A stretch of 64,000 nt of DNA, from NCBI RefSeq assembly GCF_003814555.1, contig NZ_RKQN01000001.1, forward strand, positions 558,001 to 622,000, read 5' to 3'. Under the pieces are notes generated by a model. The model was given only the letters and a program-made list of their open reading frames with translations, had not been told where the DNA came from and searched no databases. Each line of letters starts with the position of its first letter. Positions within the stretch are counted from its first letter, which is position 1. Shown here one piece after another: positions 40,415 to 56,438 of this stretch. This DNA comes from Vulcaniibacterium tengchongense (GTDB lineage Bacteria; Pseudomonadota; Gammaproteobacteria; Xanthomonadales; Xanthomonadaceae). The translations under genes were made by a program, and so were the position numbers.

Positions 40415-40493
40415 GGGCGGCAGGGGAGAAAAAGGATCGGAATTATCGCATGCCGGCCGAGGCGCTCCGCCCGGAGGCGGGCCAGAAACACGA

Positions 40494-40513
40494 ACGCCCC
40501 GGAACCGGGGCGT
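40494..40513 (-). terminator. Terminator after the DUF2147 gene
   Basis: An 8-bp stem ACGCCCCG / CGGGGCGT with a 4-base loop (40502-40505), followed on the minus strand by TCGTGTTTCT. It is 27 bases past the DUF2147 stop and upstream of metG. Confidence 0.6.
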
Positions 40514-40540
40514 CGTATCCGCGCGGCCTGCGGCCGGACG

Positions 40541-40981
40541 TCAGTCGCGGCGGACCCAGGTCTGGGTCCGGCCGAGCAGGGAGAAACCGAGGAAGCCGCG
40601 CACCTCGAGCTTCTTGCCGTCCTCGATCGGCCGCACCTTGACCGAATAGACCTTGCCGCTGGCCGGGTCGAGGATCTGCCCGCCCTCCCAGCTGTCGCCC
40701 TTCTGCCGGACGCCCCACAGGATCACCATGCCCTTGACCGGCTTGCCCTTGCGCTCGCCGGTGCACTTGTCGCAGACCGGGTTCGGGCCGCGGTCCGACT
40801 GCAGGATCTCGGCGACCCGCCCGGCCAGCGTGCCGTCCTTGGCCTGGTAGATCTCGACCACGGACTTCGGCTTCTGGGTCTTGTCGTCGATCGTGGTCCA
40901 GCTGCCGACCGGACTGGCGCCCTGGGCGAAGGCGGCGAGCGGCAGGGCCAGCAACAGCAGGGCGAGTAGTTTCGTGCGCAT
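40541..40981 (-). CDS. DUF2147 periplasmic protein
   Basis: A 146-residue exported protein of family DUF2147. The signal peptide is RTKLLALLLLALPLAAFAQ. The mature domain starts with the typical PVGSWTTIDDKTQKPKSVVEIYQAKDGTLAGRV and has the conserved CDKCTGERKGKPVKGMVILWG (CxxC), GGQILDPASGKVYSVKV and LEVRGFLGFSLLGRTQTWVR. Members are lipocalin-like and poorly characterised. I chose the ATG at 40981; the open frame reaches 41260 but that part is unconserved. It has its own terminator and a gap of 119 bases from the peptidase gene. Confidence 0.92.
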   Translation of the reverse strand: MRTKLLALLLLALPLAAFAQGASPVGSWTTIDDKTQKPKSVVEIYQAKDGTLAGRVAEILQSDRGPNPVCDKCTGERKGKPVKGMVILWGVRQKGDSWEGGQILDPASGKVYSVKVRPIEDGKKLEVRGFLGFSLLGRTQTWVRRD

Positions 40982-41100
40982 GCGTTTCCTCTCCCGGGTG
41001 GATGAATGCCAGCGGGGCCTGCGTGTTATACCGCATTCGAGACGGGCCGCGTGGCGCATCGCAGCAGATCCCCGGTGCTTGCCCATGAACCAGTCAGGCA

Positions 41101-43137: not shown

Positions 43138-43200
43138 GCGTCCGTTCCGTCTTTTCGTATGCGCGTGTCTGGCCAGCGGTTTCGCTGTATGCCAAGAAAG

Positions 43201-43226
43201 AGGCCACCGCCCGAAGGCGGTGGCCT
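43201..43226 (-). terminator. Hairpin between the TonB receptor and peptidase genes
   Basis: A perfect 11-bp stem AGGCCACCGCC / GGCGGTGGCCT with a TTCG loop on the minus strand, followed by CTTTCTTGG, 11 bases past the receptor stop. The T-run is weak, so it may terminate only part of the transcripts and let a fraction reach the peptidase gene, or it may protect the receptor mRNA. Confidence 0.7.
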
Positions 43227-43237
43227 GCTGAAAGGCG

Positions 43238-46231
43238 TCAGAACGACTTCGTTACGTTGACGAAGAACGTCCGGCCGAAGTAGTCGTAGCCGCTGTACAA
43301 CAAGGCATTGCCGACCGTGTTGTAAATGCCTTGCGAGATCGTCGGCGGCTCCTTGTCGAACATGTTGCGGACGCCGGCCGTGACCGACCACTTGTCGCCG
43401 TTGTACTGCGCCGACACGCTCGAGAGGAAATAGTTCGGCGTGTAGATCTTGTACATCGACGTGCTCGGATTGAAGTCCAGGCCGGGATTCTCACGCGCGT
43501 AGTAGTCGTAGCTCGACATCCCGTCGATCCACTCCAGGCCGTAGCGCAGGCGCCAGTTCTTGACGGTGTACGACAGATCGAGGGTGCCGGTGTACTCCGG
43601 GCGCTGCAGCATGCCGTTGTAGTCGATCAACGGATCGTCCTGGAAGACCTTGCTGGACTGCTCCAGGAAGCGGGTCAGGAGCAATGTGGCACGGAATTCG
43701 CCCGGTCCGATGTCGCGTACGTAGCGGGTGGTGAAATCCAGGCCGCGGACGATGTCGGTCGAGATGTTGACGTAGCCGTTCAACACCGTCAGCTGGTTCG
43801 ATCCGGGGTCGCGCGAAACGAGTCGGCAGAAGCCGGCGTCTTCAGCGAAGTCATTCCCCCCATAGCACAGCGACAGGATGTTCGCCGCACCCGCGCGGTC
43901 GACTCCGTTCTCGACCTCGATGTCGTAGTAGTCGACGGCAAAAGACAGGTCGCCGAAATTGTTGGAGAACTCCGGTTGGAACACCAGTCCGACGGTGAAG
44001 TTCTTCGAGGTCTCGGCCGACAGTCCGGTTTCGGCGCCGCCCAGCGTCACGACTTCAACCGATGTGGTCGCCGAGAAGTCCGGGGGCAGGCCCTCGGCGG
44101 CGCAGTTGACGTAGGTCGGCGTGTTCGGCTCGCGCTCCCCGTACTCGTTGCATGGATCGTTGGAACTGGCGAGGAAGCCGGTGGTCGCGCCCAGGAACTG
44201 TTCGAACAGCGCGGGTGCGCGGTACGAGGTGCCGTACGACGCTCGCAACGACATCCAACTCACCGGCGTCCACAGGGCGCCGATCTTGTATGTGGTGTCG
44301 CTGCCATAGGAGTCGTAATCCGTGTAGCGCCCGGATACGTTGAACGTGAGCTCTTCCGCGCCCCGCACTCCGGACAGCAGCGGGAATTCGACCTCCCCGT
44401 ACACTTCCATGACCGAGTCCTTGCCGCGGGTGGGCGTGGACGAAGTCAGGTTGTAGAGATTGCTGTTGATCGAGTGGATGTTGGGCGTGTCGTCGATCTT
44501 CGCCTCGCGCCACTCCACGCCGAACGCACCTTGGACCGTGCCGCCGATCGGCATGTCGAACAGCGGGCCGTTCACATTGAAGTTGGCCGTGGTCTCCTCG
44601 TACAGCGTATTGCCGGTGACCGGCACGAAGACCCAGTCCTTCCAAGCGGACGGCATATCGCCGGCGATGGTGGCGGTGGTCAGCGCCGGAGCGGCGACGC
44701 AGCCGTTCGCGGCGTTGCGGCAGACGAAACCGCCGGCGCCATCCGACACCACGTCCAGGCTTTGCGCGAGCCGATCCGTCAGGAACGATTCGAAGGTGTA
44801 GTCCGCATCCGAGCGGGACTTCATCAGGCCGAACTCGTAGTTCCAGGAGGAGCCCAGCTTGCCGCGAATGCCTGCCAGTGCGCGCCAGAATTCGACGTCC
44901 TGCTTGCTGTGGTCGTTGCCGAAGCCGATGAAGGCGCGAACACCGACGTTCCGGCCGTTGGTCAGCTCGCTCGGTGCGGGGGAGAATACCGAGGTGGACA
45001 GGTTGGCGGGAATCAGCGGGCTGCCCACGGCGTAGTCGAGGCTCAGCTGACGGTAGCCGGTCTGGGACGACTTGCGCTTGTTGCCGAGCACCTCGTAGAA
45101 GACCTCGGCATCGCCCAGGGCGCCGATGTCGAATCCGCCCTGCAGATAGCCGGTATGGACAGTCACCGGCGAAATCAGCGATTCGTTCAGCATGTCGGGG
45201 TCGAACGTGTCGCGGCTGTCGTAGCTGACACCTTCGAAGCCGACCAGGCCCGTGGTGACCGCGGAATTGGGCCGCCAACGGTTGAAGCGCGTGCCGGTGG
45301 CGCCCGGACCGGCGACGCCGGTGCGAGTATTGGTGCCGATCGTGTTGATCGTGACGCCGCCCGCGTCGAGGTGCCAGCACTTCGGCCGGCCGGTCATCGG
45401 ATCGATGTAGTCGCCGCTGCCCCAATAGTCACCAGCCTCGATGTCGCGCCACATCGTGGTCGGGCACCCTCCGGCCCAGTCGCGATCGCCGATGGTGAGT
45501 TCGTTGCGGCGGTAGTATTCGTACGACCCGGAAATGTGGGAGTTGTCCCCGGTCGAACCGAACATGATCGAGTAACGGCTGGAGTCGCCGCCACCGCCCT
45601 CGGTCGCGTTGTGTTGCGCCTCCATGGTGACGCCGTCGGCACGCTTGCGGGTGATGATGTTCACGACGCCTGCGACCGCGTCCGATCCGTAGATCGACGA
45701 TGCGCCGTCCTTCAGGACCTCGATGCGATCGATCATGGAGTTGGGCAGCACGTTCAAGTCGGCGGAACCGACCGATCCGCGCGACCCCGCCGGAGATACG
45801 CGGCGGCCGTTGAGCAGAATGAGCGTCCGAGTTGCCCCCAGGCCGCGCAGCGACAAGGTGTTGGCGCCGGGTCCACCATCGGTGACATAGCCGCCGTAGG
45901 CATTGTTGATCTGCGAGGAACCGGCGGTCACGCTGGTGCTTTGCAGTACGCCGGTGGTCGAATCGAAGCCGGCAAGGGTCGTTTCCTCGCGCGTGATGAC
46001 TTGCACGGGCGAAACCGAATTGAACACGTCCCTGCCGATGCGCGAGCCGGTGACGGTGACCGTATCCAGATCTTTCGCCTGGGACTGCTGTGTTTCTGCT
46101 GCCGGTTCCGCTTGTCCGGATTGCGTGCTGCTCGAATCCTGTGCGGCTGCCGTGATCGGCATCAGAAACGCGGTGAGGAGTGCTGCGCTCAAACGATTGC
46201 GCCGCAGGCGGCGCATGTGCGTTGCTGCCAT
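43238..46231 (-). CDS. TonB-dependent outer-membrane receptor (large, SusC/oligopeptide-like)
   Basis: A 997-residue TonB-dependent receptor. Signal peptide to about residue 30 (ALLTAFLMPITAAAQ), a Gln/Ser/Glu-rich spacer, the TonB box DTVTVTG (56-62), plug domain (SVSPVQVITREE, LRGLGATRTLILLNGRRV, VEVLKDG-type ASSIYGSDAVAGVVNIITRK), and a 22-strand barrel ending in a C-terminal Phe. It is the long form common in xanthomonads and sphingomonads, with a barrel of about 800 residues containing extra Cys pairs. The ribosome binding site GGGGGA lies 8 bases before the ATG. An S9 peptidase follows, so peptide uptake is the best guess. The substrate is unknown. Confidence 0.95.
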   Translation of the reverse strand: MAATHMRRLRRNRLSAALLTAFLMPITAAAQDSSSTQSGQAEPAAETQQSQAKDLDTVTVTGSRIGRDVFNSVSPVQVITREETTLAGFDSTTGVLQSTSVTAGSSQINNAYGGYVTDGGPGANTLSLRGLGATRTLILLNGRRVSPAGSRGSVGSADLNVLPNSMIDRIEVLKDGASSIYGSDAVAGVVNIITRKRADGVTMEAQHNATEGGGGDSSRYSIMFGSTGDNSHISGSYEYYRRNELTIGDRDWAGGCPTTMWRDIEAGDYWGSGDYIDPMTGRPKCWHLDAGGVTINTIGTNTRTGVAGPGATGTRFNRWRPNSAVTTGLVGFEGVSYDSRDTFDPDMLNESLISPVTVHTGYLQGGFDIGALGDAEVFYEVLGNKRKSSQTGYRQLSLDYAVGSPLIPANLSTSVFSPAPSELTNGRNVGVRAFIGFGNDHSKQDVEFWRALAGIRGKLGSSWNYEFGLMKSRSDADYTFESFLTDRLAQSLDVVSDGAGGFVCRNAANGCVAAPALTTATIAGDMPSAWKDWVFVPVTGNTLYEETTANFNVNGPLFDMPIGGTVQGAFGVEWREAKIDDTPNIHSINSNLYNLTSSTPTRGKDSVMEVYGEVEFPLLSGVRGAEELTFNVSGRYTDYDSYGSDTTYKIGALWTPVSWMSLRASYGTSYRAPALFEQFLGATTGFLASSNDPCNEYGEREPNTPTYVNCAAEGLPPDFSATTSVEVVTLGGAETGLSAETSKNFTVGLVFQPEFSNNFGDLSFAVDYYDIEVENGVDRAGAANILSLCYGGNDFAEDAGFCRLVSRDPGSNQLTVLNGYVNISTDIVRGLDFTTRYVRDIGPGEFRATLLLTRFLEQSSKVFQDDPLIDYNGMLQRPEYTGTLDLSYTVKNWRLRYGLEWIDGMSSYDYYARENPGLDFNPSTSMYKIYTPNYFLSSVSAQYNGDKWSVTAGVRNMFDKEPPTISQGIYNTVGNALLYSGYDYFGRTFFVNVTKSF

Positions 46232-46321
46232 CTAGAATCCCCCAAGTTGGCTTCGTTGCGGACAGAAGAAAAAGCAAGAGGCCCGGTCCCTGGGCCATGA
46301 TGTGTCTGGTGTCAATCCCCC

Positions 46322-46350
46322 TTGACGGCCCGAACGTAACACGGAATTAA
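46322..46350 (+). promoter_or_regulatory. Probable apbC promoter
   Basis: TTGACG (46322-46327), a 17-base spacer and AATTAA (46345-46350, weak -10). The apbC GTG is 53 bases further. The same short region must also hold the promoter of the divergent receptor gene, for which I find no clear hexamers. Confidence 0.35.
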
Positions 46351-46402
46351 CAGAGGTGAAAAGGCGTGACAACAATCGCCAAATCTGGCAAAGGCGGCTC
46401 GC

Positions 46403-47467
46403 GTGAGTGAGGCATTGCAGGCACGGGTGGCGGCGCTCGAGGCTCCGGAGCTCGGCGTTTCCCTGACCGAAGCCGGTGCCCGGATCAGGGCGGCCGTCAG
46501 CGACGGCCGCGCCGCGATCGAGGTGGTCCTGGGCTTCCCGGGCGACTGGCTGCGGCCCTGGCTGCAGGCGCAAGCCGAGCGGGCCGCCGCGGCCGAGGGC
46601 GCCTCCCTGGCGCGGCTGGAGCTGCATTCGCGTATCGCCGCGCATGCGGTGCAGCCGAACCTGACGCCGCTGCCGGCGGCGCGCAATCTGATCGCGGTCG
46701 GCTCGGGCAAGGGCGGCGTGGGCAAGTCGACGACCGCGGTGAACCTCGCCCTGGCGCTGGCGGCGGACGGCGCGCGCGTGGGCGTGCTCGACGCCGACAT
46801 CTACGGGCCGAGCGTGCCGACCATGCTCGGTCTGGGCGGGCGCCCGGACAGCCCCGACGGCAAGACCATCGAGCCGATGCGCGCGCACGGCGTGGAGGCG
46901 ATGTCGATCGGCCTGCTGGTCGAGCAGGACACGCCGATGATCTGGCGCGGGCCGATGGCGACCTCGGCGCTCACCCAACTGCTGAACGAGACGCGCTGGG
47001 GAGATCTGGACTACCTGGTCGTCGACCTGCCGCCCGGCACCGGCGACATCCAGCTGACGCTGGCGCAGAAGATCCCTGTCGCCGGCGCGGTGATCGTGAC
47101 CACGCCGCAGGACGTGGCCACGCTGGACGCGCGCAAGGCGCTGAAGATGTTCGAGAAGGTGCAGGTGCCGGTGCTCGGCCTGGTCGAGAACATGGCGGTG
47201 CACGTGTGCTCCAACTGCGGCCATGCCGAGCACGTGTTCGGCGAAGGCGGCGGCCAGCGCATGGCCGCGCAGTACGGGGTGCCGTTGCTCGGCAGCCTGC
47301 CGCTGGAGATCGCGATCCGCGAGCAGGGCGACGCCGGCGTGCCGGTGGTCGCCGCCGCGCCGGACAGCGCCGCGGCGCGCGCCTACCGGAATACGGCGCG
47401 GCGGCTGGCGGTCGAGCTCGCGCGGCGGCCGCAGGTGGCCAGGCCGCTGGCGGTCACGCTGCGCTGA
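46403..47467 (+). CDS. apbC: Iron-sulfur cluster carrier ATPase ApbC/Mrp
   Basis: A 354-residue Mrp/NBP35 family P-loop ATPase that carries and delivers Fe-S clusters. A MIP18-like N-terminal domain (about residues 1-80) is followed by the deviant Walker A GSGKGGVGKSTTAVNLA, DADIYGPSVPTMLG, WGDLDYLVVDLPPGTGD and the cluster-binding CxxC in HVCSNCGHAEHVFGEGGG. It starts at a GTG (46403). In related genomes apbC lies beside metG and before dcd; here the receptor, peptidase and DUF2147 genes lie between metG and apbC. Confidence 0.95.
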   Translation: MSEALQARVAALEAPELGVSLTEAGARIRAAVSDGRAAIEVVLGFPGDWLRPWLQAQAERAAAAEGASLARLELHSRIAAHAVQPNLTPLPAARNLIAVGSGKGGVGKSTTAVNLALALAADGARVGVLDADIYGPSVPTMLGLGGRPDSPDGKTIEPMRAHGVEAMSIGLLVEQDTPMIWRGPMATSALTQLLNETRWGDLDYLVVDLPPGTGDIQLTLAQKIPVAGAVIVTTPQDVATLDARKALKMFEKVQVPVLGLVENMAVHVCSNCGHAEHVFGEGGGQRMAAQYGVPLLGSLPLEIAIREQGDAGVPVVAAAPDSAAARAYRNTARRLAVELARRPQVARPLAVTLR

Positions 47468-47652
47468 CGCCGCCGAAGCGGTCGCGCGCCGGACGCGCGA
47501 TCCGCGGGACCGGCGCGGCGGCCACGGCGCGATGGCGGAGGCAGGCAGGCGACGGACGTGGAGCGACGCGGGCCGGCCCGGCCGCGCCTGGGCTGGCCGG
47601 TCCGCCTGCCACGTGGGACACGGCGGCCCGGCCGTCCGGCGCCGAATCCGCT

Positions 47653-47658
47653 TAGAAT
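47653..47658 (+). promoter_or_regulatory. -10 element of dcd
   Basis: TAGAAT (47653-47658), 30 bases before the dcd ATG, in a very GC-rich stretch. No convincing -35 at 16-18 bases upstream. Confidence 0.35.
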
Positions 47659-47688
47659 CGCCGCTTCCCATTGCCCCGACGCCGCCGC

Positions 47689-48258
47689 ATGAGCATCAAG
47701 TCCGACCGATGGATCCGCCGCATGGCCGAACGGCACGGCATGATCGAGCCGTTCGAGCCCGGCCAGGTCAAGACCGCCGCCGACGGCCACCGCATCGTCA
47801 GCTACGGCACCTCGAGCTACGGCTACGACGTGCGCTGCTCGCGCGAGTTCAAGGTGTTCACCAACATCAACTCGACCATCGTCGACCCGAAGAACTTCGA
47901 CAGCGGCAGCTTCGTCGACATCGAGTCGGACGTGTGCATCATCCCGCCGAACAGTTTCGCGCTGGCGCGCACGGTCGAGTACTTCCGCATCCCGCGCGAC
48001 GTGCTGGTGGTGTGCCTGGGCAAGAGCACCTACGCGCGTTGCGGCATCATCGTCAACGTCACGCCGCTGGAACCGGAGTGGGAAGGCCACGTGACCCTGG
48101 AGTTCAGCAACACCACGCCGCTGCCGGCGAAGATCTACGCCGGCGAGGGCGTGGCGCAGATGCTGTTCTTCCAGTCGGACGAGGTGTGCGAAACCTCGTA
48201 CAAGGACCGCGGCGGCAAGTACCAGGGCCAGACCGGGGTGACGCTGCCGCGCACCTGA
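47689..48258 (+). CDS. dcd: dCTP deaminase
   Basis: A 189-residue trimeric enzyme that deaminates dCTP to dUTP, the main route to dTTP precursors in gammaproteobacteria. Conserved parts: [66 protein letters not shown], with the catalytic Glu in the [11 protein letters not shown] segment, and the C-terminal [12 protein letters not shown] lid. The length compares with 193 in E. coli. I chose the ATG at 47689 ([14 protein letters not shown]); six more codons upstream are open. Confidence 0.97.
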
Positions 48259-48360: not shown

Positions 48361-48858
48361 ATGGAACAGCAAAACCCGTACCAGAGCCCGCAGACGCAGG
48401 TGCAGGACTACAGCGGCGACCTGCGGCTCGCCGGGCGCGGCAAGCGTCTCGGGGCCGCATTGCTGGATGCGGTGATCGCCATCGTCGTCATGCTGCCGAT
48501 CATGTTCGCCGGCGGCTACTTCGCGACGATGTCGGACGGCGGGCCGGGGATCGGCGTGCAGTTGCTTTGGGGCGTGGTGGGCCTGGCGGTGTTCTTCGCC
48601 ATCCAGTACGTGCCGCTGAAGAACAGCGGGCAGACCTGGGGCAAGAAGATCGTCGGCATCAGGATCGTCGACATGGAGGGCCGCCAGCCCGACCTGGGCG
48701 TGCTGCTCGGGCGCCGTTACCTGTTCGCCAACGGCATCGGCCTGGTGCCGCTCGTCGGCGGGCTGATCAGCCTGGTCAACGTGCTCTTCATCTTCCGCTC
48801 CGACCGCCGCTGCCTGCACGACGTGGTGGCGGATACGCAGGTCGTCGAAGCGGACTGA
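48361..48858 (+). CDS. RDD family membrane protein
   Basis: A 165-residue integral membrane protein with the RDD domain. The polar N terminus (MEQQNPYQSPQTQVQD, an NPYxSP motif often seen before RDD and DUF domains) is followed by the family Arg/Asp-rich start (LAGRGKRLGAALLDAVIA) and about three transmembrane segments (VIAIVVMLPIMFAGGYF, LLWGVVGLAVFFAIQYV, LVPLVGGLISLVNVLFIF), with GQTWGKKIVGIRIVD and RRCLHDVVADTQVV as conserved ends. A strong Shine-Dalgarno (GGGGAGAAG) lies 5 bases before the ATG. The function is unknown; some RDD proteins are proposed Na+/H+ transporters. Confidence 0.92.
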   Translation: MEQQNPYQSPQTQVQDYSGDLRLAGRGKRLGAALLDAVIAIVVMLPIMFAGGYFATMSDGGPGIGVQLLWGVVGLAVFFAIQYVPLKNSGQTWGKKIVGIRIVDMEGRQPDLGVLLGRRYLFANGIGLVPLVGGLISLVNVLFIFRSDRRCLHDVVADTQVVEAD

Positions 48859-48879
48859 CGCGGGGCCCGCGGCAGGCGC

Positions 48880-48918
48880 GAACGCGGGCCGGGCCTTGGG
48901 GTCCGGCCCGCGTTCGTT
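48880..48918. terminator. Bidirectional terminator between the RDD and pcp genes
   Basis: A 13-bp stem GAACGCGGGCCGG / CCGGCCCGCGTTC around a 10-base loop (48893-48902), with GTTC following on the plus strand. It lies between two convergent genes, 21 bases past the RDD stop and about 16 bases past the pcp stop. Confidence 0.75.
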
Positions 48919-48933: not shown

Positions 48934-49593
48934 TCAGTGCTCCGCGCCCGCGGCGAACCGGTGGTCCGCGCCGGTGGTCAGGGCCACGTCCAGCGCCAGC
49001 CGCAGGCCCTGCACGACGGTTTCGATCGGCAGGCTCGGCGCGCCCGGATGGCGCGCGGCCTGCGCCGGCGCGTAGGGGATGTGGACGAAGCCGCCGCGCA
49101 CGCCGGGGCGCTCGCGCAGGGCGTGCATCAGGCCGTAGAACACGTGGTTGCAGACGTAGGTGCCGGCGGTCTGCGAGATCTCCGCGGGAACGCCGGCCGC
49201 GCGCAGCCCCGCCAGCATCGCCTTGATCGGCAGGCCGGTGAAATAGGCGGTGGGGCCGCCCGCGATCACCGGCGTGTCCACCGGCTGCGCGCCGGCATTG
49301 TCGGGGATGCGCGCGTCGTCCACGTTGATCGCGACGCGCTCCAGCGAGAGCTGCGCGCGCCCGCCGGCCTGGCCCACGCACAGGACCAGCGCCGGCCGCA
49401 GTTCGTCCAGCGCGGCCCACAGCGCCCGCAACGAAGCGCCGAACTCCACCGGCAGGCAGCGCGCCACGGCCCGGTGCCCGGCGATGCGCTCGCCGTCGAG
49501 CGCGCGCACCGCATCCCAGCTCGGGTTCACGCTTTCGCCGCCGAACGGGGCGAAGCCGGTCAGCAGCACGACGGGTTCGGCGAAGGCGCTCAT
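48934..49593 (-). CDS. pcp: Pyroglutamyl-peptidase I
   Basis: A 219-residue cysteine peptidase (C15) that removes N-terminal pyroglutamate from peptides, releasing 5-oxoproline. The catalytic triad is Glu85 ([16 protein letters not shown]), Cys148 ([11 protein letters not shown]) and His171 (GFVHIPY); the N terminus [19 protein letters not shown] is the family start. It is the last gene of the 5-oxoproline operon, its ATG overlapping the stop of the DUF979 gene. It therefore feeds the same metabolite that PxpABC consumes. Cytoplasmic, no signal peptide. Confidence 0.97.
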
Positions 49594-50543
49594 CGGAACG
49601 CGAACCAGTACATCAGCAGCACGTTGCACAGCAGCAGGAGCGCGCCGGTGAGCCATTGCGCGCGGATCACCCCGTACGGGTCCTCGAGCTCCAGCAGCGC
49701 CGCCGGCACCAGGTTGAAGTTGGCCGCCATCGGCGTCATCAGCGTGCCGCAGTAGCCCGAGAGCATGCCGATCGCCGCCAGCGCCGCCGGCTCGGCGCCG
49801 TGCTGGCGCACCAGCAGGGGCAGGGCGATGCCGGCGGTCATCACCGGGAAGGCGGCGAAGGCGTTGCCCATGATGACGGTGAACAGCGCCATGCCCAGTG
49901 CGTAGGCGAGCACCACCGCGAACGGGTTCTCGACCGGGATCAGCGCCCGCACCACGCCGGCCACCGCCTGGCCGACGCCGCCCGCCTCGAACACGCTGCC
50001 GAGCGTGGCCAGCAGCAGCGGCAGCAGCGCGGCCCAGCCGATCGCGTCGACCAGGCGCCGCGACTGCTCGACCGCGCTCCACGGCGTCTGCCGGGTCAGC
50101 CGGCACGCGGCGGCGAGCGCGACCAGACAGGCGAGCGCCAGCGACACCAGGGTGACGTTGGCCGGATCCAGCAGCGGCGTGCCGCCGATGCGCAGGTGCT
50201 GGAGCCCGAGCGCCCCCAGCAGCGTCACCGCCGGGATCAGCAAGGCCGGCCGGAACAGCCGGTTGCCCAGGCGCCGCGCTTCGCTGCGCTTCTCCTCGGC
50301 GCCGCTTTCGTCGTAGCGGCCCATGCGCAGCCCGCCGAAACCGGCCAGCGCCGCGAGCAGCACCACCGCCGCGCCGACCAGGCGCGCCGGCAGCTGCTCG
50401 GCCGCGAACAGCAGCGCCGCGAGCAGTCCCCAAAACAGCGCGGTGGTGTGGCGCCGCGGGTTGCCGCGGTCGCGCAGGCCGCGCCAGGCCAGCGCCGCCA
50501 GGTAGGCGCCGAGCAGCCAGTAGACGAAGGCCAGCCCGATCAC
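49590..50543 (-). CDS. DUF979 membrane protein, probable 5-oxoproline permease subunit
   Basis: A 317-residue hydrophobic protein with about eight to nine predicted transmembrane segments ([84 protein letters not shown], and others). The conserved regions include [16 protein letters not shown] and [31 protein letters not shown]979 almost always pairs with DUF969 and is reported in clusters with the 5-oxoprolinase genes pxpABC, where the pair is thought to transport 5-oxoproline. It lies 7 bases after the DUF969 gene and overlaps pcp. Substrate is inferred from context. Confidence 0.9.
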
Positions 50544-50550
50544 GCGCGGC

Positions 50551-51237
50551 TCACCCTTCGCGCCCGGCGGCTCGCGCCCGCGCCAGCCGGCGTTCGAACC
50601 GGAATACCCGGACCGCGTGGATCAGGAACGCGCAGATCGCGGTGGGGATGCCCCACAGCGCGATCTGCAGCGGCTCCAGGCGAATGCCGTGCTCGACGAA
50701 GAAGCCCTGGATCAGCAGCACCGCCCCGAACGCGATGAACACGTCCTCGCCGAAGAACAGGCCGACGTTGTCGGTGCCGGCGGCCATCGCGCGGATGCGC
50801 TGGCGCGCGGCGTCGTCGAGCGCGCCGTGGCGCAGTTCGGCCGCGGCCTCGGCCATCGGCGCGAGCAGCGGGCGCACGGTCTGCGGGTGCCCGCCGAGGC
50901 TGGTCAGCCCGAGCGACGCGGCCAGCTGGCGCATCGCCAGGTAGGCGACGAGCAGGCGGCCCAGGGTCGCCCCGCGCAGCCGCGCGACCCAGCGCTGCGC
51001 GTGTTCCTTCAGGCCGTGGCGTTCGAGCAGGCCGATCACCGGCAAAGTCAGCAGGAACAGCAACAGGTAGCGCTTCTCGGTGAAGGCGCGGCCGAGGATG
51101 TCGAGCACCTCGAGCGGCGACAGCCGCGCCGCCAGCCCGGTGACGAAGCCGGCGACCACCACCACCAGCGCCGGATTGAGCCGCAGCACGAAGCCGACGA
51201 CGACCGCAGCGACCCCGAGCAACGGCCAGTAGTTCAT
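50551..51237 (-). CDS. DUF969 membrane protein, probable 5-oxoproline permease subunit
   Basis: A 228-residue membrane protein with about five to six transmembrane segments (YWPLLGVAAVVVGFVLRL, ALVVVVAGFVTGLAA, YLLLFLLTLPVIGLLE, IQGFFVEHG.., ALWGIPTAICAFLIHAV). Conserved parts include LGLTSLGGHPQTVRPLLAPMAE and GTDNVGLFFGEDVFIAFGAVLLIQ. It is the usual partner of DUF979 and sits between pxpA and DUF979; its ATG overlaps the pxpA stop (ATGA). Together they are likely one transporter for 5-oxoproline or a related acid. The frame extends upstream but only this part is conserved. Confidence 0.9.
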   Translation of the reverse strand: MNYWPLLGVAAVVVGFVLRLNPALVVVVAGFVTGLAARLSPLEVLDILGRAFTEKRYLLLFLLTLPVIGLLERHGLKEHAQRWVARLRGATLGRLLVAYLAMRQLAASLGLTSLGGHPQTVRPLLAPMAEAAAELRHGALDDAARQRIRAMAAGTDNVGLFFGEDVFIAFGAVLLIQGFFVEHGIRLEPLQIALWGIPTAICAFLIHAVRVFRFERRLARARAAGREG

Positions 51238-51989
51238 GGCGCCGCTCCGAACGGCCTGACCGCCACGCCTTCGGCGTCCAGCGCCGCGCGCAGGGCGCGG
51301 GCGAACGCGGCGGCGTCGGGGCGGTCGCCGTGCAGGCACAACGTGTCGGCCCGCAGCGCGACCAGGCCGCCGTCGCCGGCGACGACCTCGCCGCGCGCGG
51401 CCAGGCGCCGGGCCTGCGCGATCGCCGCGTCCAGCGATTCCAGCACCGCGCCCGGCGCGCCCCGCGGGAGCAGGCGGCCGCGCCGGTCGTAGCCGCGCTC
51501 GGCGAACACCTCGTGCGCCACGCGCAGCCCGCGCGCCTCGCCGGCCTCGGCCAGGGCCGAGCCGGAAAGCGCGTACAGCGCGAGCGCCGGGTCGAACCCG
51601 GCGACCGCCGCGGCGATCGCGTCGGCGACGGCGCGGTCGTCGGCGGCCAGGTTGTACAGCGCGCCGTGCGGCTTGACGTGGGCCAGGCGCACGCCTTCCT
51701 CGTTCGCGACGGCCGCGAGCCGGGCGAGCTGGCGCCGCACCGCCGCGGCGATTTCCGCCGGCGGCAACGCCAGCGCGCGGCGGCCGAAGTGCGCGCGGTC
51801 CTCGAACGAGGGATGGGCGCCGGCGGCGACGCCGTGCGCGCGGCACAGGCGCAGGGTCGCGCGCATCGTCGCCTCGTCGCCGGCATGGCCGCCGCAGGCG
51901 ATGCTCGCCGAGCTGATCGACGGCACGATCGCCGCATCGTCGCCGCAGCCTTCGCCGAGATCGCAGTTGAAGTCGATGCGCTTGTCCAC
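51234..51989 (-). CDS. pxpA: 5-oxoprolinase subunit A (LamB/YcsF family)
   Basis: A 251-residue subunit of the ATP-dependent 5-oxoprolinase PxpABC, which opens pyroglutamate to glutamate. The family starts with xDFNCDLGEG; here it is RIDFNCDLGEGCGDDAAIVPSISSASIACGGHAGD, with the conserved Asp and His of SIACGGHAGD, then AGAHPSFEDRAHFGRR, VKPHGALYN and LRADTLCLHGDRPDA. I chose a GTG start at 51989 (MDKRIDFNCDLG); an in-frame ATG at 52061 would run through the small membrane-protein gene. Its stop overlaps the DUF969 start. Confidence 0.96.
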   Translation of the reverse strand: MDKRIDFNCDLGEGCGDDAAIVPSISSASIACGGHAGDEATMRATLRLCRAHGVAAGAHPSFEDRAHFGRRALALPPAEIAAAVRRQLARLAAVANEEGVRLAHVKPHGALYNLAADDRAVADAIAAAVAGFDPALALYALSGSALAEAGEARGLRVAHEVFAERGYDRRGRLLPRGAPGAVLESLDAAIAQARRLAARGEVVAGDGGLVALRADTLCLHGDRPDAAAFARALRAALDAEGVAVRPFGAAP

Positions 51990-52006
51990 GGCGGCCGCCC
52001 GCGGCC

Positions 52007-52171
52007 TCAGCCCCGCTTGAACAGCATGCCCAGGCCGACCGCGATCAGCAGCGCCGGCCACCAGGTCATCAGCAGCCGGCCCAGGCTCATGTCGGTGAAG
52101 CCCAGGTTGTTGAGCAGGAACAGCGTGCCGAGGACGACCAGCACCAGCGCGCCGACGATGTTGGATTTCAT
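52007..52171 (-). CDS. 54-residue membrane protein (LiaI/DUF5668-like)
   Basis: A short gene too small for many gene finders: MKSNIVGALVLVVLGTLFLL... ending AVGLGMLFKRG, 54 residues. Two hydrophobic segments (about 4-20 and 36-50) flank a polar turn, NNLGFTDMSLGRLL, with a Trp-Trp-Pro at 37-39 (MTWWPALLI). This is the pattern of the LiaI/LiaF-type transmembrane domain (DUF5668), seen in many single-domain proteins of unknown role. The ATG overlaps the pxpC stop (ATGA) and 17 bases separate it from pxpA, so it is an ordinary member of the operon. Nothing in it suggests a catalytic role; it could help the transporter or be unrelated. Confidence 0.85.
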   Translation of the reverse strand: MKSNIVGALVLVVLGTLFLLNNLGFTDMSLGRLLMTWWPALLIAVGLGMLFKRG

Positions 52172-53148
52172 GGGGATCTCGCCAGAGAACGGAAAAGAGG
52201 AGACGCGGCCGGATGCGCGTCGAGCATGAGCGCGATTCTGGCGAGCCGTGCCCGCGCGGCGCAAGCCAGGCGCTGTGCGGTCGCCGCGTCGCAGGGCGCG
52301 AAGCGCAAGGTGCGGCCGGGCAGGACTTGCGCCAGGCGCGGCAGATGCGCGGCGATCACGTGGCCCAGGCGCGGGTAGCCGCCGACGGTCTGCGCATCGG
52401 CGAGCAGCACGATCGGCTGGCCGTCCGGCGGCAACTGCAGGGTGCCGGGCGCCACCGGTTCGGACACGCCGTCCGCCGCGTCCGCGCGCAACGGCTCGCC
52501 GCGCAGGCGCAGGCCCTGGCGGTTGCTGCCGGGATCGACCCGCCAGGCGCGCGCCGCCAGCGCGTGCGCGCACGGATGCGGCGAGGGGCGGTACAGGATC
52601 GGCGCGTCGGCATCGTCGCCGTGGCGCGGATCGACCCACCACGCCGGCGCGCGCGGCGCCGCGCAATCGAACGCATCGGCGTCGCCCAGCGGCAGCACGT
52701 CGCCGGCGCGCAGCGCGCGCCCGTGCGCGCCGCCGAAGCCGCCGCGCAGGTCGGTGCTGCGGCTGCCGAGCACGGCCGGCAGCGCGATGCCGCCGGACAC
52801 CGCCAGCCAGGCGCGCGCGCCGCCGCGCACCGCGCCCAGGTGCAGGGTGCCGGCAGGCAGTTCCACCGGGCGGCCGCAGGGAACCGCGACACCGTCGAAG
52901 CGCGCCTCGACCCGTGCGCCGACCAGCGCGATCCGCGCCGGCGCGTCGAAGCGCAGCGTCGGCCCGCGCAGCGCGATTTCCAGCACCGCCGCATCGACGT
53001 CGTTGCCGGCCAGGCGATTGGCCAGGCGCGCGGCATCCGGATCGAGCGCGCCGGCGCACGCCACGCCGAGATGCCGCCAGCCCGTGCGCCCGCCGTCCTG
53101 CACGGTGGTTTGCAGACCGGGCGCCAGCACCTGCAGGGCGCGGCTCAT
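52168..53148 (-). CDS. pxpC: 5-oxoprolinase subunit C (biotin-dependent carboxyltransferase family)
   Basis: A 326-residue PxpC (AHS2/KipA-like). The N terminus has the family pattern LQVLAPGLQTTVQDGGRTGWRHLGVACAGALDPDAARLANRLAGND, followed by LEIALRGPTLRFD, RAWLAVSGGIALPAVLGSRSTDLRGGFGG and GRPLRAGD-type stretches. The distal part has SNRQGLRLRGEPL, SEPVAPGTLQLPPDGQPIVLLADAQTVGGYPRLGHVI. With PxpB it forms the kinase-like half of the 5-oxoprolinase. The ATG overlaps the pxpB stop; its own stop overlaps the small membrane-protein gene. No defect is visible. Confidence 0.96.
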   Translation of the reverse strand: MSRALQVLAPGLQTTVQDGGRTGWRHLGVACAGALDPDAARLANRLAGNDVDAAVLEIALRGPTLRFDAPARIALVGARVEARFDGVAVPCGRPVELPAGTLHLGAVRGGARAWLAVSGGIALPAVLGSRSTDLRGGFGGAHGRALRAGDVLPLGDADAFDCAAPRAPAWWVDPRHGDDADAPILYRPSPHPCAHALAARAWRVDPGSNRQGLRLRGEPLRADAADGVSEPVAPGTLQLPPDGQPIVLLADAQTVGGYPRLGHVIAAHLPRLAQVLPGRTLRFAPCDAATAQRLACAARARLARIALMLDAHPAASPLFRSLARSP

Positions 53149-53846
53149 CGCGCGGCTCCGTCGAAGCCCGCTTCCGCCGCACCGACCGCGACGAACCGCA
53201 CCCGGTCGCCGGGTTGCAGCAGCGCCGGCGGCTCGCGCGCCGGATCGAACAGCGCGAGCGGCGTGCGGCCGAGGATGCGCCAGCCGCCCGGGCTCTCGCG
53301 CGGGTAGATGCCGCTCTGGGCGCCGCCGATCGCCACGCTGCCGGCGGCCACGCGCGTGCGCGGCGTCGCCAAGCGCGGCAGCGCGAGCGCGGGGTCGAGC
53401 CCGAGCAGGTAGGGAAAGCCCGGCGCGAAGCCGATCATCGCGACGACGTAGTCGCCGGCGGCGTGGCGCTCGGCCAGCTGCGCCGGCGCCAGGCCAAGCT
53501 CGGCGGCGGCGGCTTCGAGGTCCGGCCCGCAGTCGCCGCCGTACGCGACCGGGATCTCGACGATCCGCGCCGCCTCCGGCGCGCGCGTCGCCGGGGCGTG
53601 CGCATCCGCCAGGGCGAGCAATTCGGCGCGTACGCGTGCCGGGTCCGCCGCCGGGTCGAAGAACACGCCGAGGCTGGCGAACGCCGGCACCAGGTCGCGC
53701 AGCCATTCCGGCGCGGCCTGGCGCAGGCGCGCGGCGACGGCGTGCACGCGGGCGTTGAGGTGCGGGTCGAGGCGCGCGCCGAAGCGCAGCAGCCAAGCGT
53801 CGTCGGCCAGCGCTTCGATCCCGCAGTCGCCGGGCGCGCCGCTCAC
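53145..53846 (-). CDS. pxpB: 5-oxoprolinase subunit B (AHS1/KipI family)
   Basis: A 233-residue PxpB (AHS1). Features: ALADDAWLLRFGARLDPHLNARVHAVAARL at the start, VEIPVAYGGDCGPDLEAAAAELGL, YVVAMIGFAPGFPYLLGLD (family signature), LPRLATPRTRVAAGSVAIGGAQSGIYPRESPGGWRILGRTPL. The GTG start (53846) overlaps the HIT gene stop (GTGA). In E. coli the same proteins are YbgJ (PxpB), YbgK (PxpC) and YbgL (PxpA). The gene order here is B-C-small gene-A, so the usual B-C-A set is interrupted by the 54-residue protein. Confidence 0.96.
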   Translation of the reverse strand: MSGAPGDCGIEALADDAWLLRFGARLDPHLNARVHAVAARLRQAAPEWLRDLVPAFASLGVFFDPAADPARVRAELLALADAHAPATRAPEAARIVEIPVAYGGDCGPDLEAAAAELGLAPAQLAERHAAGDYVVAMIGFAPGFPYLLGLDPALALPRLATPRTRVAAGSVAIGGAQSGIYPRESPGGWRILGRTPLALFDPAREPPALLQPGDRVRFVAVGAAEAGFDGAAR

Positions 53847-54262
53847 GAGGCCAATGCGGCGCGCAGGCGTTCGATCCGCTCGACCAGCGCCTCCGGCGTG
53901 TACGGCTGCGCCGCGGCCATGCCCCAGACCGGCTTGGGCCAGGCGATGTCGTCGCGGAAGCGGGCGATCACGTGCACGTGCAGCTGCGGCACCAGGTTGC
54001 CGAGCGCGGCGACGTTGAGCTTGTCCGGCCGGAACGCGGCGCGCAGCGCGCGCGAGGCGCGGGCGATCTCGCGGGTCAGTTCGGCCTGCTGCGCCTCGTC
54101 CAGGTCGATCAGTTCGACCGCGTTCCCGACCCGCGGCACCAGGATCAGCCACGGATGGTGCGCGTCGTCCATCAGGCGCAACTCGCTGAGCGCGAACTGG
54201 GCGACGGGATGGGTGTCCTCGGCCAGCTGCGGGTGCAGCTGCCAGCGCGCGTCCCGGTTCAT
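53843..54262 (-). CDS. HIT family protein
   Basis: A 139-residue histidine-triad protein, a small nucleotide-phosphate hydrolase family. The body HPWLILVPRVGNAVELIDLDEAQQAELTREI is typical, and the triad region is NLVPQLHVHVIARF. The canonical pattern is H-x-H-x-H-x-x; the first His is replaced by Gln, while the second (catalytic) His and the third are present. This Q-L-H-x-H variant is frequent in proteobacterial relatives and so is probably active. It is the second gene of the operon; its start overlaps the DLH gene stop. The link to 5-oxoproline use is unclear. Confidence 0.92.
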   Translation of the reverse strand: MNRDARWQLHPQLAEDTHPVAQFALSELRLMDDAHHPWLILVPRVGNAVELIDLDEAQQAELTREIARASRALRAAFRPDKLNVAALGNLVPQLHVHVIARFRDDIAWPKPVWGMAAAQPYTPEALVERIERLRAALAS

Positions 54263-54930
54263 CGCAGGCTCTCGGCGAGGAAATCGACGGTGCGGCGCCA
54301 GGCCAGCCCGGCGCTGGCCGGGTGATGGGCGTGGTTGTCGACGTCGCGGTTGAACGCGTGGCCGGCGCCGGGATAGACGTGGATGCGCGCGTTCGGCTGG
54401 CGCCGCCGGTGCGCCTCGATGTCCTCCGGCGGGATGCTCGGGTCCTCGGCGCCGAAGTGGAACAGCATCGGCGCGCGCAGCGGTTCGTCCAGGAACGGCA
54501 TCGTGCGCGCGCCGTAATACGACACCGCCGGCAGGCCGAGGCGGGTATTGGCGAGGAAGGCCACACTGCCGCCCCAGCAGAACCCGACCGCGCCGACGCG
54601 CAGGCCTTCGCCGTGCTGGAGCAGGTCGGCGGCGGCCTTGACGATGTCGATCGCGCGGTCGAAGCCGAGCTGTTCGCGCAAGGCGCGGCCGCGTTCGGTG
54701 CCGGCCGCGTCGTAGCCCAACTCGACCCCGCGCGCGATCGGGTCGTACAGCGCCGGGGCGAGGGCGACGAAGCCGGCGTCGGCGAAGCGCTCGGCGACGG
54801 CGCGGATGTGCGGGTTCAGGCCGAAGATTTCCTGCAGCACGAGCACCGCGCCGCGCGACGGGCCGGCCGGGTCAGCGCGCCAGGCGCGGACCGGGCCGTG
54901 GGCGGTATCGAGGTCGAGCCAGTGGGGCAT
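54259..54930 (-). CDS. Dienelactone hydrolase family protein
   Basis: A 223-residue alpha/beta hydrolase of the dienelactone hydrolase family. The nucleophile elbow [10 protein letters not shown] has Cys instead of Ser, the family norm; Asp is in [15 protein letters not shown] and His in [11 protein letters not shown]. The N-terminal region has [25 protein letters not shown]. Related proteins cleave lactones or act as carboxymethylenebutenolidases; the natural substrate here is unknown. It is the first gene of the nine-gene operon and diverges from rimO by about 150 bases, so the operon promoter should lie in 54931-55079. Confidence 0.92.
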
Positions 54931-55079: not shown

Positions 55080-56438
55080 ATGCCCCTAGCCCATCCCAAA
55101 GTCGGTTTCGTCAGCCTCGGCTGCCCCAAGGCGCTGGTCGACTCCGAGCGCATCCTGACCCAGCTCAAGGTCGAGGGCTACGAGATCGTGCCCAGCTACG
55201 ACGCGGCCGACGTGGTGGTGGTCAACACCTGCGGCTTCATCGATTCGGCCGTCGCCGAATCGCTGGACGCGATCGGCGAGGCGATGGCCGAGAACGGCAA
55301 GGTCATCGTCACCGGCTGCCTCGGCAAGAGGCCGGAGCAGATCCGCGAGGCGCATCCGGGCGTGCTGGCCATCAGCGGCCCGCAGGACTACGCCAGCGTG
55401 ATGCGGGCGGTGCACGCGGCGCTGCCGCCCCGGCACGATCCGTTCCTGGATCTGGTGCCCCGTCGGTCCAACGAGGCGGACACGGACGCGGTCGGGGTCA
55501 AGCTGACCCCCAAGCACTACGCCTACCTGAAGATCTCCGAAGGCTGCAACCATCGCTGCAGCTTCTGCATCATCCCGTCGATGCGCGGCGACCTGGTCTC
55601 GCGGCCGGTCGACCAGGTGCTGCGCGAGGCGGAAAAGCTGGTCATGGGCGGGGTCAAGGAACTGCTGGTGATCTCGCAGGACACCTCCGCCTACGGCGTC
55701 GACCTGAAGTACGCCGAGCGCGAATGGCGCGGCCGCGCCTACGCCACGCGGATGAAGGCGCTGTGCGAGGGGCTGGGCGAGCTGGGCGTGTGGACGCGGC
55801 TGCACTACGTCTATCCGTACCCGCACGTGGACGACGTGGTGCCGCTGATGGCCGAGGGCAGGCTGCTGCCGTACCTGGACATTCCGTTCCAGCACGCCAG
55901 CCCGCGCATCCTGCGGCTGATGAAGCGGCCGGGCGCGGTGGACAAGGTGCTCGAGCGCATCCGCCGCTGGCGCGAGATCTGCCCCGAGATCGCGATCCGC
56001 TCCACCTTCATCGTCGGTTTCCCCGGCGAGACCGACGCCGAGTTCGAGGAATTGCTGGACTTCCTCGACGAGGCGCAGCTGGACCGCGTCGGCGCGTTCG
56101 CCTACTCGCCGGTGGAGGGCGCCAGCGCCAACGCGCTGCCCGATCCGGTGCCGGAGGCGGTCAAGCAGGAACGCTTGGCGCGCTTCATGGAGCGGCAGGC
56201 GGAGATCTCCGCCGCGAAGCTCGAGGCCAAGGTCGGGACGGTGCAGCGCTGCCTGGTGGACGCGATCGACGGCGAGCTGGCGCTCGCGCGCTCGCGCTTC
56301 GACGCGCCGGAGATCGACGGCCTGGTGCAGATCCAGAACGGCTTCGAGGCCGGCCTCAGGCCCGGCGAATTCGTCGACGTCGAGATCATGGGCAGCGACG
56401 AGCACGACCTGTACGGCGAGGTCGCGTTCGACGACTGA
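55080..56438 (+). CDS. rimO: Ribosomal protein S12 methylthiotransferase RimO
   Basis: A 452-residue radical-SAM enzyme that methylthiolates Asp88 of ribosomal protein S12. The N-terminal MTTase domain carries Cys15 ([13 protein letters not shown]), Cys51 (VNTCGFID) and the Cys of [12 protein letters not shown]; the radical-SAM cluster is [15 protein letters not shown]. The C-terminal TRAM domain has the characteristic [32 protein letters not shown] and [17 protein letters not shown] are also conserved. The length is close to E. coli RimO (441). It is transcribed alone toward the paired-hairpin element. Confidence 0.97.

What the first reader, a model, noticed from the sequence alone, without database searches (positions are those of the whole stretch)
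48934..54930. A complete, tightly packed 5-oxoproline operon with two unexplained passengers
Seen: nine minus-strand genes in a row with nearly every start overlapping the previous stop (ATGA or GTGA): DLH, HIT, pxpB, pxpC, a 54-aa membrane protein, pxpA, DUF969, DUF979, pcp. Known: PxpABC hydrolyses 5-oxoproline, Pcp releases it from peptides, and DUF969/DUF979 occur in such clusters as candidate transporters. Inference: one transcript covers release, transport and use of 5-oxoproline. The HIT protein, the dienelactone hydrolase and the small membrane protein have no known place in this pathway; the hydrolase could act on a lactone or ring-type analogue.
Basis: partly seen in the sequence, partly recalled or inferred. 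Interest (0 to 1): 0.6.

Follow-up and report, generated by a model that had tools for sequence, protein, structure and literature searches.

The report
5-oxoproline operon in a resident gene row
This is an ordinary set of genes for using the cyclic amino acid 5-oxoproline, and three of its nine genes turn out to be long-standing local neighbours that show no link to that pathway.

Summary
The nine minus-strand genes are there at 48934-54930; six of eight junctions overlap by 4 bp, the other two are 17 and 7 bp apart. The core (pxpA, pxpB, pxpC, DUF969, DUF979, pcp) is a known type of 5-oxoproline operon. The 'passengers' DLH and HIT, plus the 54-aa LiaI/LiaF-like membrane protein (smp), are residents of a row rimO-DLH-HIT-(smp)-dcd. 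Across 119 genomes of the family, pxpB co-occurs with pxpA (phi 0.98) and DUF979 (0.88) but not with HIT (0.14, p 0.26) or smp (0.01, p 1.0). DLH is adjacent to HIT in 65 of 67 HIT loci without pxpB and in 45 of 48 with it; in 24 of the 67 smp comes next after HIT. So a DLH role in 5-oxoproline use is not supported. An extra: DUF969 and DUF979 exist as two deep types that replace each other together, in place, without the flanking pxpA and pcp: about eight switches, no mixed pair. This fits the proposed two-subunit transporter. Otherwise ordinary.

The parts
54259..54930 (-). DLH: dienelactone-hydrolase-family alpha/beta hydrolase, 223 aa; first gene of the row; resident, not a pathway member
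   Evidence: PF01738 5.5e-39; PDB 1din 4.2e-21; adjacent to HIT in 65 of 67 family HIT loci without pxpB
53843..54262 (-). HIT: histidine-triad-superfamily protein, 139 aa, motif Q-L-H-V-H; resident
   Evidence: PF01230 4.6e-14; PDB 3i4s 7.9e-41; Q-L-H-x-H invariant in nine aligned rows, window included; in 116 of 119 family genomes, 108 of 108 of the good ones
53145..53846 (-). pxpB, 5-oxoprolinase subunit (GTG start, 233 aa)
   Evidence: TIGR00370 193.7 bits, cut-off 145.55; PF02682
52168..53148 (-). pxpC, 5-oxoprolinase subunit (326 aa, about 20 aa past the PxpC model)
   Evidence: PF02626; TIGR00724 240.3 over cut-off 230.2; NF045499 PxpC 235.5, below its cut-off of 500
52007..52171 (-). 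smp: 54-aa LiaI-LiaF-like transmembrane protein; resident
   Evidence: PF18917 7.1e-12; next after HIT in 24 of 67 family HIT loci without pxpB, between pxpC and pxpA in 15 of 48 with it; phi with pxpB 0.01
51234..51989 (-). pxpA, 5-oxoprolinase subunit (GTG start, 251 aa)
   Evidence: PF03746 8e-85; NF003814 286 bits over cut-off 226; phi with pxpB 0.98
50551..51237 (-). DUF969, candidate 5-oxoproline transporter subunit (type I allele)
   Evidence: PF06149 1.8e-90
49590..50543 (-). DUF979, candidate 5-oxoproline transporter subunit (type I allele, GTG start)
   Evidence: PF06166 7.1e-116; phi with pxpB 0.88; swaps together with DUF969
48934..49593 (-). pcp, pyroglutamyl-peptidase I
   Evidence: PF01470 3.2e-74; TIGR00504 265.9 over cut-off 201.75; 41 of 42 family genomes with pcp hold pxpB
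48879..48916 (-). GC-rich hairpin behind pcp, probable transcript end between pcp and the convergent RDD gene (no run of T; inferred)
   Evidence: RNA fold -46.1 kcal/mol, z -5.14, 0 of 200 shuffles as good; the consensus terminator scan did not list it
55080..56438 (+). rimO, divergent left anchor of the resident row
   Evidence: UPF0004, radical SAM, TRAM_2; next to DLH in 95 of 115 family HIT loci
47692..48258 (+). dcd (dCTP deaminase), right anchor of the resident row (start codon uncertain)
   Evidence: PF22769 6.1e-38
48361..48858 (+). RDD-family membrane protein between pcp and dcd, convergent
   Evidence: PF06271 1.7e-22

Best explanation
A standard 5-oxoproline catabolic operon (pxpB, pxpC, pxpA, DUF969, DUF979, pcp) sits inside a resident chromosomal row, rimO-DLH-HIT-(smp)-dcd, that is common in the Lysobacteraceae. 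Shown by sequence: gene identities, overlaps, the row with and without pxp genes, and the split of the nine genes by profile into a linked set and bystanders. Inferred: Pcp removes N-terminal pyroglutamate from peptides, DUF969/DUF979 together form a two-subunit importer of 5-oxoproline, and PxpABC opens the ring to glutamate at the cost of ATP. DLH, HIT and the small LiaI/LiaF-like protein are probably co-transcribed because of position and tight packing, but do a separate, unknown job that their genomes keep when the pxp genes are absent.
For: Profiles over 119 family genomes (sets, three weak pxpB hits set aside): pxpB with pxpA 52 both, 0 and 1 alone, phi 0.98; with DUF979 46 both, 6 and 1 alone, phi 0.88; with HIT 52 both, 0 and 64 alone, phi 0.14, p 0.26; with smp 19 both, 33 and 24 alone, phi 0.01, p 1.0. 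pcp: 41 of its 42 genomes hold pxpB (one of the 42 is a fragment). DLH adjacent to HIT in 65 of 67 HIT loci without pxpB and 45 of 48 with it; smp next after HIT in 24 of the 67, between pxpC and pxpA in 15 of the 48. In other families of the order rimO, DLH and HIT stand in that order without pxp while pxp lies elsewhere in the same genome (G119, G140, G131). Named cases at this locus: Lysobacter soli and L. arvi with pxp; Thermomonas haemolytica and L. concretionis without. Of 59 kept HIT loci not labelled Lysobacterales, 55 have neither DLH beside HIT nor pxpB. pxpBCA distances follow the rimO+dcd tree within the family (Mantel r 0.63, n 36).
Against: Profiles show genetic independence, not biochemical irrelevance: DLH or HIT could still help in genomes that have pxp. 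HIT is directly followed by pxpB in 48 of 48 family HIT loci that hold pxpB, mostly closely spaced (50 of 53 estimated at 30 nt or less, a count that includes a few misjudged large overlaps), so shared expression may be selected. DLH itself was followed only through neighbourhoods, not by a genome-wide profile. The PxpC equivalog cut-off is not reached. There are no expression or enzyme data for this genome.
Confidence: 0.88

Rival explanations
1. DLH and/or HIT and the small membrane protein take part in 5-oxoproline metabolism, for example by opening a lactone or ring analogue.
For: Contiguity and overlaps in the window; HIT next to pxpB in 48 of 48 family HIT loci that hold pxpB.
Against: No co-occurrence of HIT or smp with pxpB; DLH-HIT equally conserved without pxpB, also in other families of the order; three family pxp loci have no HIT or DLH near (L076, L080, L082); HIT without DLH or pxp in 55 of 59 kept loci not labelled Lysobacterales.
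Confidence: 0.05
2. The residents have no biochemical role in the pathway, but the pxp genes are kept at this spot because the DLH-HIT promoter gives useful expression or regulation (positional co-regulation). This is compatible with the best explanation.
For: Close HIT-pxpB spacing (50 of 53 estimated at 30 nt or less, some estimates faulty); pxpBC stays behind DLH-HIT in G022, G036 and G066 although pxpA and DUF979 lie elsewhere.
Against: In five genomes of another family of the order (f12) pxp stands away from DLH-HIT; no promoter-like site was found.
Confidence: 0.25
3. History: pxp genes were inserted repeatedly at a favoured site behind HIT, rather than being ancestral here and lost many times. 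This concerns how the row arose, not what it does.
For: Patchy presence: 21 parsimony changes on the rimO+dcd tree; some relatives in the order carry pxp elsewhere.
Against: pxpBCA distances track the anchor tree within the family (r 0.63); same gene order and same insertion point in the 48 family HIT loci with pxpB; pxp-positive rows are the earliest branches of the family in the anchor tree, a quick tree with weak nodes there.
Confidence: 0.25

Closest known systems
PxpABC 5-oxoprolinase operons (E. coli, B. subtilis: Niehaus et al. 2017, not held, known here from citing passages and recall; C. glutamicum pxpTABC: PMC13274462, passages and Discussion seen)
   Same: pxpA, pxpB and pxpC together, next to a transporter
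   Different: Here the transporter is DUF969/DUF979, not the NRAMP-like PxpT/YcsG; pcp is included; none of the nine genes is a regulator; three unrelated residents are interleaved
DUF969/DUF979 as a heteromeric transporter of the IT superfamily (PMC11467057, passages seen) and C. jejuni cj0552-4 (PMC12795558, passages seen)
   Same: The same two families, adjacent, in a 5-oxoproline context; the first paper predicts a DUF969-DUF979 complex, the second reports a preliminary loss of 5-oxoproline use in a cj0552-4 mutant
   Different: New here: two deep types exchanged as a pair in place
rimO-DLH-HIT-(smp)-dcd row of Lysobacteraceae without pxp (e.g. Thermomonas haemolytica L264, Lysobacter concretionis L262)
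   Same: Same anchors and same DLH and HIT genes
   Different: The pxp-DUF969-DUF979-pcp genes are absent from the slot

Membership tests
PxpABC 5-oxoprolinase | PxpB (CT_C_D) as a separate protein | tested here: met
   TIGR00370 193.7 bits over 145.55; PF02682
PxpABC 5-oxoprolinase | PxpC (CT_A_B) as a separate protein | tested here: inconclusive
   PF02626 and TIGR00724 cut-offs met; PxpC equivalog NF045499 covers positions 2-303 of 306 but 235.5 bits against a cut-off of 500
PxpABC 5-oxoprolinase | PxpA (LamB_YcsF) | tested here: met
   PF03746 8e-85; subfamily models NF003814 286 over 226 and NF003816 222 over 213; the equivalog models NF003812, NF003813 and NF003815 were below their cut-offs
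PxpABC 5-oxoprolinase | The subunit genes occur together across genomes | tested here: met
   pxpA-pxpB phi 0.98 over 119 genomes
PxpABC 5-oxoprolinase | ATP-dependent hydrolysis of 5-oxoproline | not testable with these tools
   needs enzyme assay or growth test
DUF969/DUF979 5-oxoproline transporter | Both proteins, adjacent, linked to pxp | tested here: met
   estimated spacing 30 nt or less in 47 of 47 pairs; DUF979-pxpB phi 0.88
DUF969/DUF979 5-oxoproline transporter | IT-superfamily fold | tested here: inconclusive
   models too poor (mean pLDDT 61.6 for DUF979, 56.0 for DUF969); no solved relative of DUF979 by sequence up to E 1; no fold search made
DUF969/DUF979 5-oxoproline transporter | Transport of 5-oxoproline | not testable with these tools
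   only preliminary mutant evidence in C. jejuni (PMC12795558, passages)
Pyroglutamyl-peptidase I | Peptidase C15 family over curated cut-offs | tested here: met
   TIGR00504 265.9 over 201.75; NF009676 285.2 over 199
5-oxoproline pathway membership of HIT and smp | Co-occurrence with pxpB across genomes | tested here: not met
   HIT phi 0.14, smp phi 0.01
5-oxoproline pathway membership of DLH | Kept beside HIT only where pxpB is present | tested here: not met
   adjacent to HIT in 65 of 67 loci without pxpB and 45 of 48 with it; no genome-wide profile of DLH was made

The most novel reading that the evidence does not exclude
DUF969 and DUF979 form an obligate two-gene transporter cassette whose two ancient types (I and II) have been exchanged in place about eight times within Lysobacteraceae, between unmoved pxpA and pcp, because the types differ in a selectable property such as substrate, affinity or coupling ion. 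The operon would then be a natural series of transporter swaps around a fixed enzyme.
Probability: 0.4. Interest if true: 0.5.

Novelty: new member of a known kind. Interest (0 to 1): 0.3.

Why it matters
It takes three genes off the list of candidate 5-oxoproline genes and shows how misleading overlapping, operon-like packing can be without a profile control. The in-place, pairwise replacement of DUF969/DUF979 is independent support for the idea that these two uncharacterised families work as one transporter, and it supplies natural type I/type II pairs for testing substrate and coupling.

Tried and rejected
Rejected: DLH as a lactone/ring hydrolase of the pathway (neighbourhood and profile evidence). 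Rejected: pxpBC as part of a urea carboxylase or amidolyase; the urea_carbox model was far below its cut-off (36.8 and 169.1 of 1303.85) and the two proteins are separate. Led nowhere: AlphaFold models of DUF979 and DUF969 on ten-row alignments were too poor, so no fold search was made; the promoter scan found nothing and the terminator scan was at chance level; the genus holds one genome only. Literature: two searches gave 0 papers (Lysobacter with 5-oxoprolinase; three of four terms pxpB, dienelactone hydrolase, HIT family, gene neighborhood). DUF969 or DUF979 is in six held papers (listing); passages of two, PMC11467057 and PMC12795558, were seen and do not mention two types or swapping; the other four were seen as listings only. 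Other listings.

Rows dropped before counts: three weak, partial pxpB hits (G041, G086, G091) of the 55; the three pxp loci without HIT (L076, L080, L082) from the 115 HIT loci; L150 and L151 (second fetches of G089 and G061, no HIT in them). The 115 HIT loci leave out the window's own. Three of the 67 HIT loci without pxpB belong to genomes that hold pxpB elsewhere (G030, in fragments; G034; G113). Caveats on the types: they were named from the DUF969+DUF979 tree, so one change on each single-gene tree is partly by construction; the genera tested by AU were picked after seeing the tree; G100's genes matched in pieces (apparent frameshifts).
Full report
OBSERVATION. Nine minus-strand genes lie end to end at 54930-48934: DLH 54930-54259, HIT 54262-53843, pxpB 53846-53145 (GTG), pxpC 53148-52168, a 54-aa membrane protein 52171-52007 ('smp'), pxpA 51989-51234 (GTG), DUF969 51237-50551, DUF979 50543-49590 (GTG), pcp 49593-48934. 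Six of eight junctions are 4-bp overlaps; smp-pxpA has a 17-bp gap and DUF969-DUF979 a 7-bp gap (read). Pfam assigns every gene above its cut-off and names the small protein LiaI-LiaF-like_TM1. NCBIfam cut-offs are met for PxpB, two PxpA subfamily models, the broader TIGR00724 for PxpC, and pyroglutamyl-peptidase I; the strict PxpC equivalog is matched over almost its whole length but at 235.5 bits against 500. A hairpin of -46.1 kcal/mol (z -5.14) follows pcp at about 48916-48879 and may end the transcript, though it has no run of T and the consensus scan did not list it. The genome has a single PF02682 match.

WHERE IT IS. The family is Lysobacteraceae: contigs behind unnamed handles have the lengths of named records (G108:C16 and NZ_FUXP01000001.1 of Lysobacter spongiicola, both 894733 bases; G051:C4 and NZ_SMAP01000004.1 of Thermomonas haemolytica, both 246313). 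The window's own genus has one held genome, whose name I do not know.

THE PASSENGERS ARE RESIDENTS. I searched 119 genomes of the family for pxpB (55 with a match, of which I set aside three weak partial ones, leaving 52), HIT (116), smp (43), DUF979 (47), pxpA (53) and pcp (42). I read up to about 16 kb (less at contig ends) around pxpB or, in genomes without it there, around HIT. Profiles: pxpB-pxpA phi 0.98; pxpB-DUF979 phi 0.88; pxpB-HIT phi 0.14 (Fisher p 0.26); pxpB-smp phi 0.01 (p 1.0). All but one of the 42 pcp genomes hold pxpB. Neighbourhood: of 115 HIT loci (the window's own not counted), 48 hold pxpB and 67 do not; three of the 67 are from genomes with pxpB elsewhere (G030, G034, G113). 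DLH is adjacent to HIT in 45 of the 48 and in 65 of the 67; rimO is adjacent to DLH in 95 of 115. Where pxpB is missing, the commonest orders are rimO-DLH-HIT-dcd (31 loci) and rimO-DLH-HIT-smp-dcd (15). smp is the next match after HIT in 24 of the 67 (15-97 bp between match ends in 23, 955 bp in one), whereas in 15 of the 48 pxpB loci it lies between pxpC and pxpA. So the pxp genes occupy a slot around smp, and the residents stay when the slot is empty. Three family pxp loci (L076, L080, L082) have no DLH or HIT near.

WIDER. In the order (151 genomes) I looked at the loci kept for the best HIT matches. Of 16 from families other than f1 and f12, 10 have DLH next to HIT (3 of 3 in f2, 7 of 9 in f3, 0 of 4 in f9) and none has pxpB there. 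Three of these genomes (G119, G140, G131) carry pxp at another place. In family f12, 7 of 23 HIT loci have pxpB next to HIT, and five genomes carry pxp elsewhere. A scan of named genomes with an alignment of HIT proteins kept the best 80 of 563 relatives. Of 21 loci labelled Lysobacterales, 11 have DLH-HIT with pxpB, 8 DLH-HIT without it, one pxpB without DLH, one neither. Of 59 others, 55 have neither DLH beside HIT nor pxpB by tblastn with the window's proteins (Bradyrhizobium, Acinetobacter, Pseudoalteromonas and others); the four exceptions (L254, L267, L270, L271) are MAGs named only to class or phylum, two of which have the contig lengths of family genomes (L254 and G007:C55, 16077; L270 and G004:C41, 41568). 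In this sample DLH-HIT is a pairing of this order, and pxp stands beside it there.

HISTORY. On a quick rimO+dcd tree of 128 rows the presence of pxpB at the locus needs 21 changes, against a mean of 38.0 (minimum 30) in 500 shuffles; if it was present at the root of the family, at least 16 losses among 101 rows. Distances of pxpB+C+A follow the anchor tree within the family (Mantel r 0.63, n 36, p 0.0005), so mainly vertical inheritance with repeated loss is the simpler reading; repeated insertion is not excluded.

THE TRANSPORTER PAIR MOVES ON ITS OWN. DUF969+DUF979 distances follow the anchor tree only weakly (r 0.24, n 28, p 0.0015). Identity to the window of DUF969 and DUF979 is strongly correlated over 48 loci (r 0.94) but weakly with pxpA (r 0.44 and 0.47). 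There are two deep types. Within genus g46, G077 carries the window's type (DUF969 90%, DUF979 85% to the window) and G045 and G104 the other (63% and 55-58%), while pxpA (77-79%) and pcp (74-76%) are level in all three; forty-residue windows show the step near the edges of the pair. Genus g39 repeats this less sharply (G100 against G038 and G073; G100 is also more distant in pxpA and pcp, and its genes matched in pieces). Holding the three g46 rows, or the three g39 rows, together on the DUF969+DUF979 tree is rejected (AU p 6.5e-26 and 3.7e-72), and holding type I together on the pxpBCA tree is rejected (p 5.1e-56; 35 rows, 18 type I); these groups were chosen after the trees were seen. Type changes: 8 on pxpBCA (100 shuffles: mean 11.9, range 9-15, so the type still carries some family signal); 9 on pxpA, 9 on pcp, 8 on pxpB, 10 on pxpC, 1 on DUF969 and 1 on DUF979. 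No mixed pair was seen, though the types were named from the joint tree and close linkage alone would also discourage mixing. Each of the 47 genomes with DUF979 has one copy (in two, G067 and G100, as two fragments), which speaks against, but does not exclude, old duplication with reciprocal loss. Visible type differences in ten aligned rows include a ten-residue longer DUF979 loop in type II and, in DUF969, GGHPQ in type I against AGHAQ or GGHAQ in type II.

MECHANISM. From established knowledge and the papers seen: PxpABC hydrolyses 5-oxoproline to glutamate with ATP (PMC13274462, passages and Discussion; Niehaus 2017 recalled, not held); Pcp removes N-terminal pyroglutamate (recalled); DUF979 was assigned to the IT superfamily as a single-repeat protein with DUF969 as predicted partner (PMC11467057, passages), and a C. 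jejuni cj0552-4 mutant lost 5-oxoproline use in a preliminary test (PMC12795558, passages). My own attempt to model the two proteins failed. The resident HIT protein resembles solved HIT proteins (3i4s) and has Gln in place of the first His of the triad, invariant in nine aligned rows (the H-x-H-x-H motif is recalled). The DLH resembles dienelactone hydrolases. Their real substrates are unknown.

VERDICT. As a system it is a known kind; the positional history and the swapping transporter pair are modest additions.

Noticed in passing
L036, L047, L061, L063, L067, L069, L070 (between pxpC and pxpA): Several relatives have a further gene between pxpC and pxpA; a fragment of the L061 copy is DUF885 (PF05960, 9.2e-36), a family of unknown function, and the others look alike by eye.
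   Followed up: partly
G022, G036, G066 (and, on separate contigs that may be assembly breaks, G033, G099, G049): pxpBC stays behind DLH-HIT while pxpA and DUF979 (with pcp in some) lie elsewhere in the genome: the operon has split at the pxpC/pxpA border.
   Followed up: partly
G003, G054, G108 (genus g4), also G007 (72% complete), G011, G064: Six family genomes have pxpA and pxpB but no DUF979 match: internal recycling of 5-oxoproline only, or another transporter.
   Followed up: no
window 52168-52240: pxpC runs about 20 residues past the PxpC model and its stop overlaps the start of smp; in relatives the estimated gap there is about 20 nt (median of 10 estimates). It may be a recent loss of an earlier stop.
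   Followed up: no
window 40001-48000: GC falls to 0.638 and 0.675 in an otherwise 0.70-0.76 window, over large minus-strand open frames 41101-43137 and 43238-46231.
   Followed up: no
L091, L099, L113, L131, L133, L147: Two smp-like matches in a row behind HIT in some genomes without pxp at the locus.
   Followed up: no
G014 (L059 and L082): One family genome has two pxpB-pxpC-pxpA sets, one behind DLH-HIT and one diverged set (46-47% to the window in pxpB and pxpA) elsewhere.
   Followed up: no
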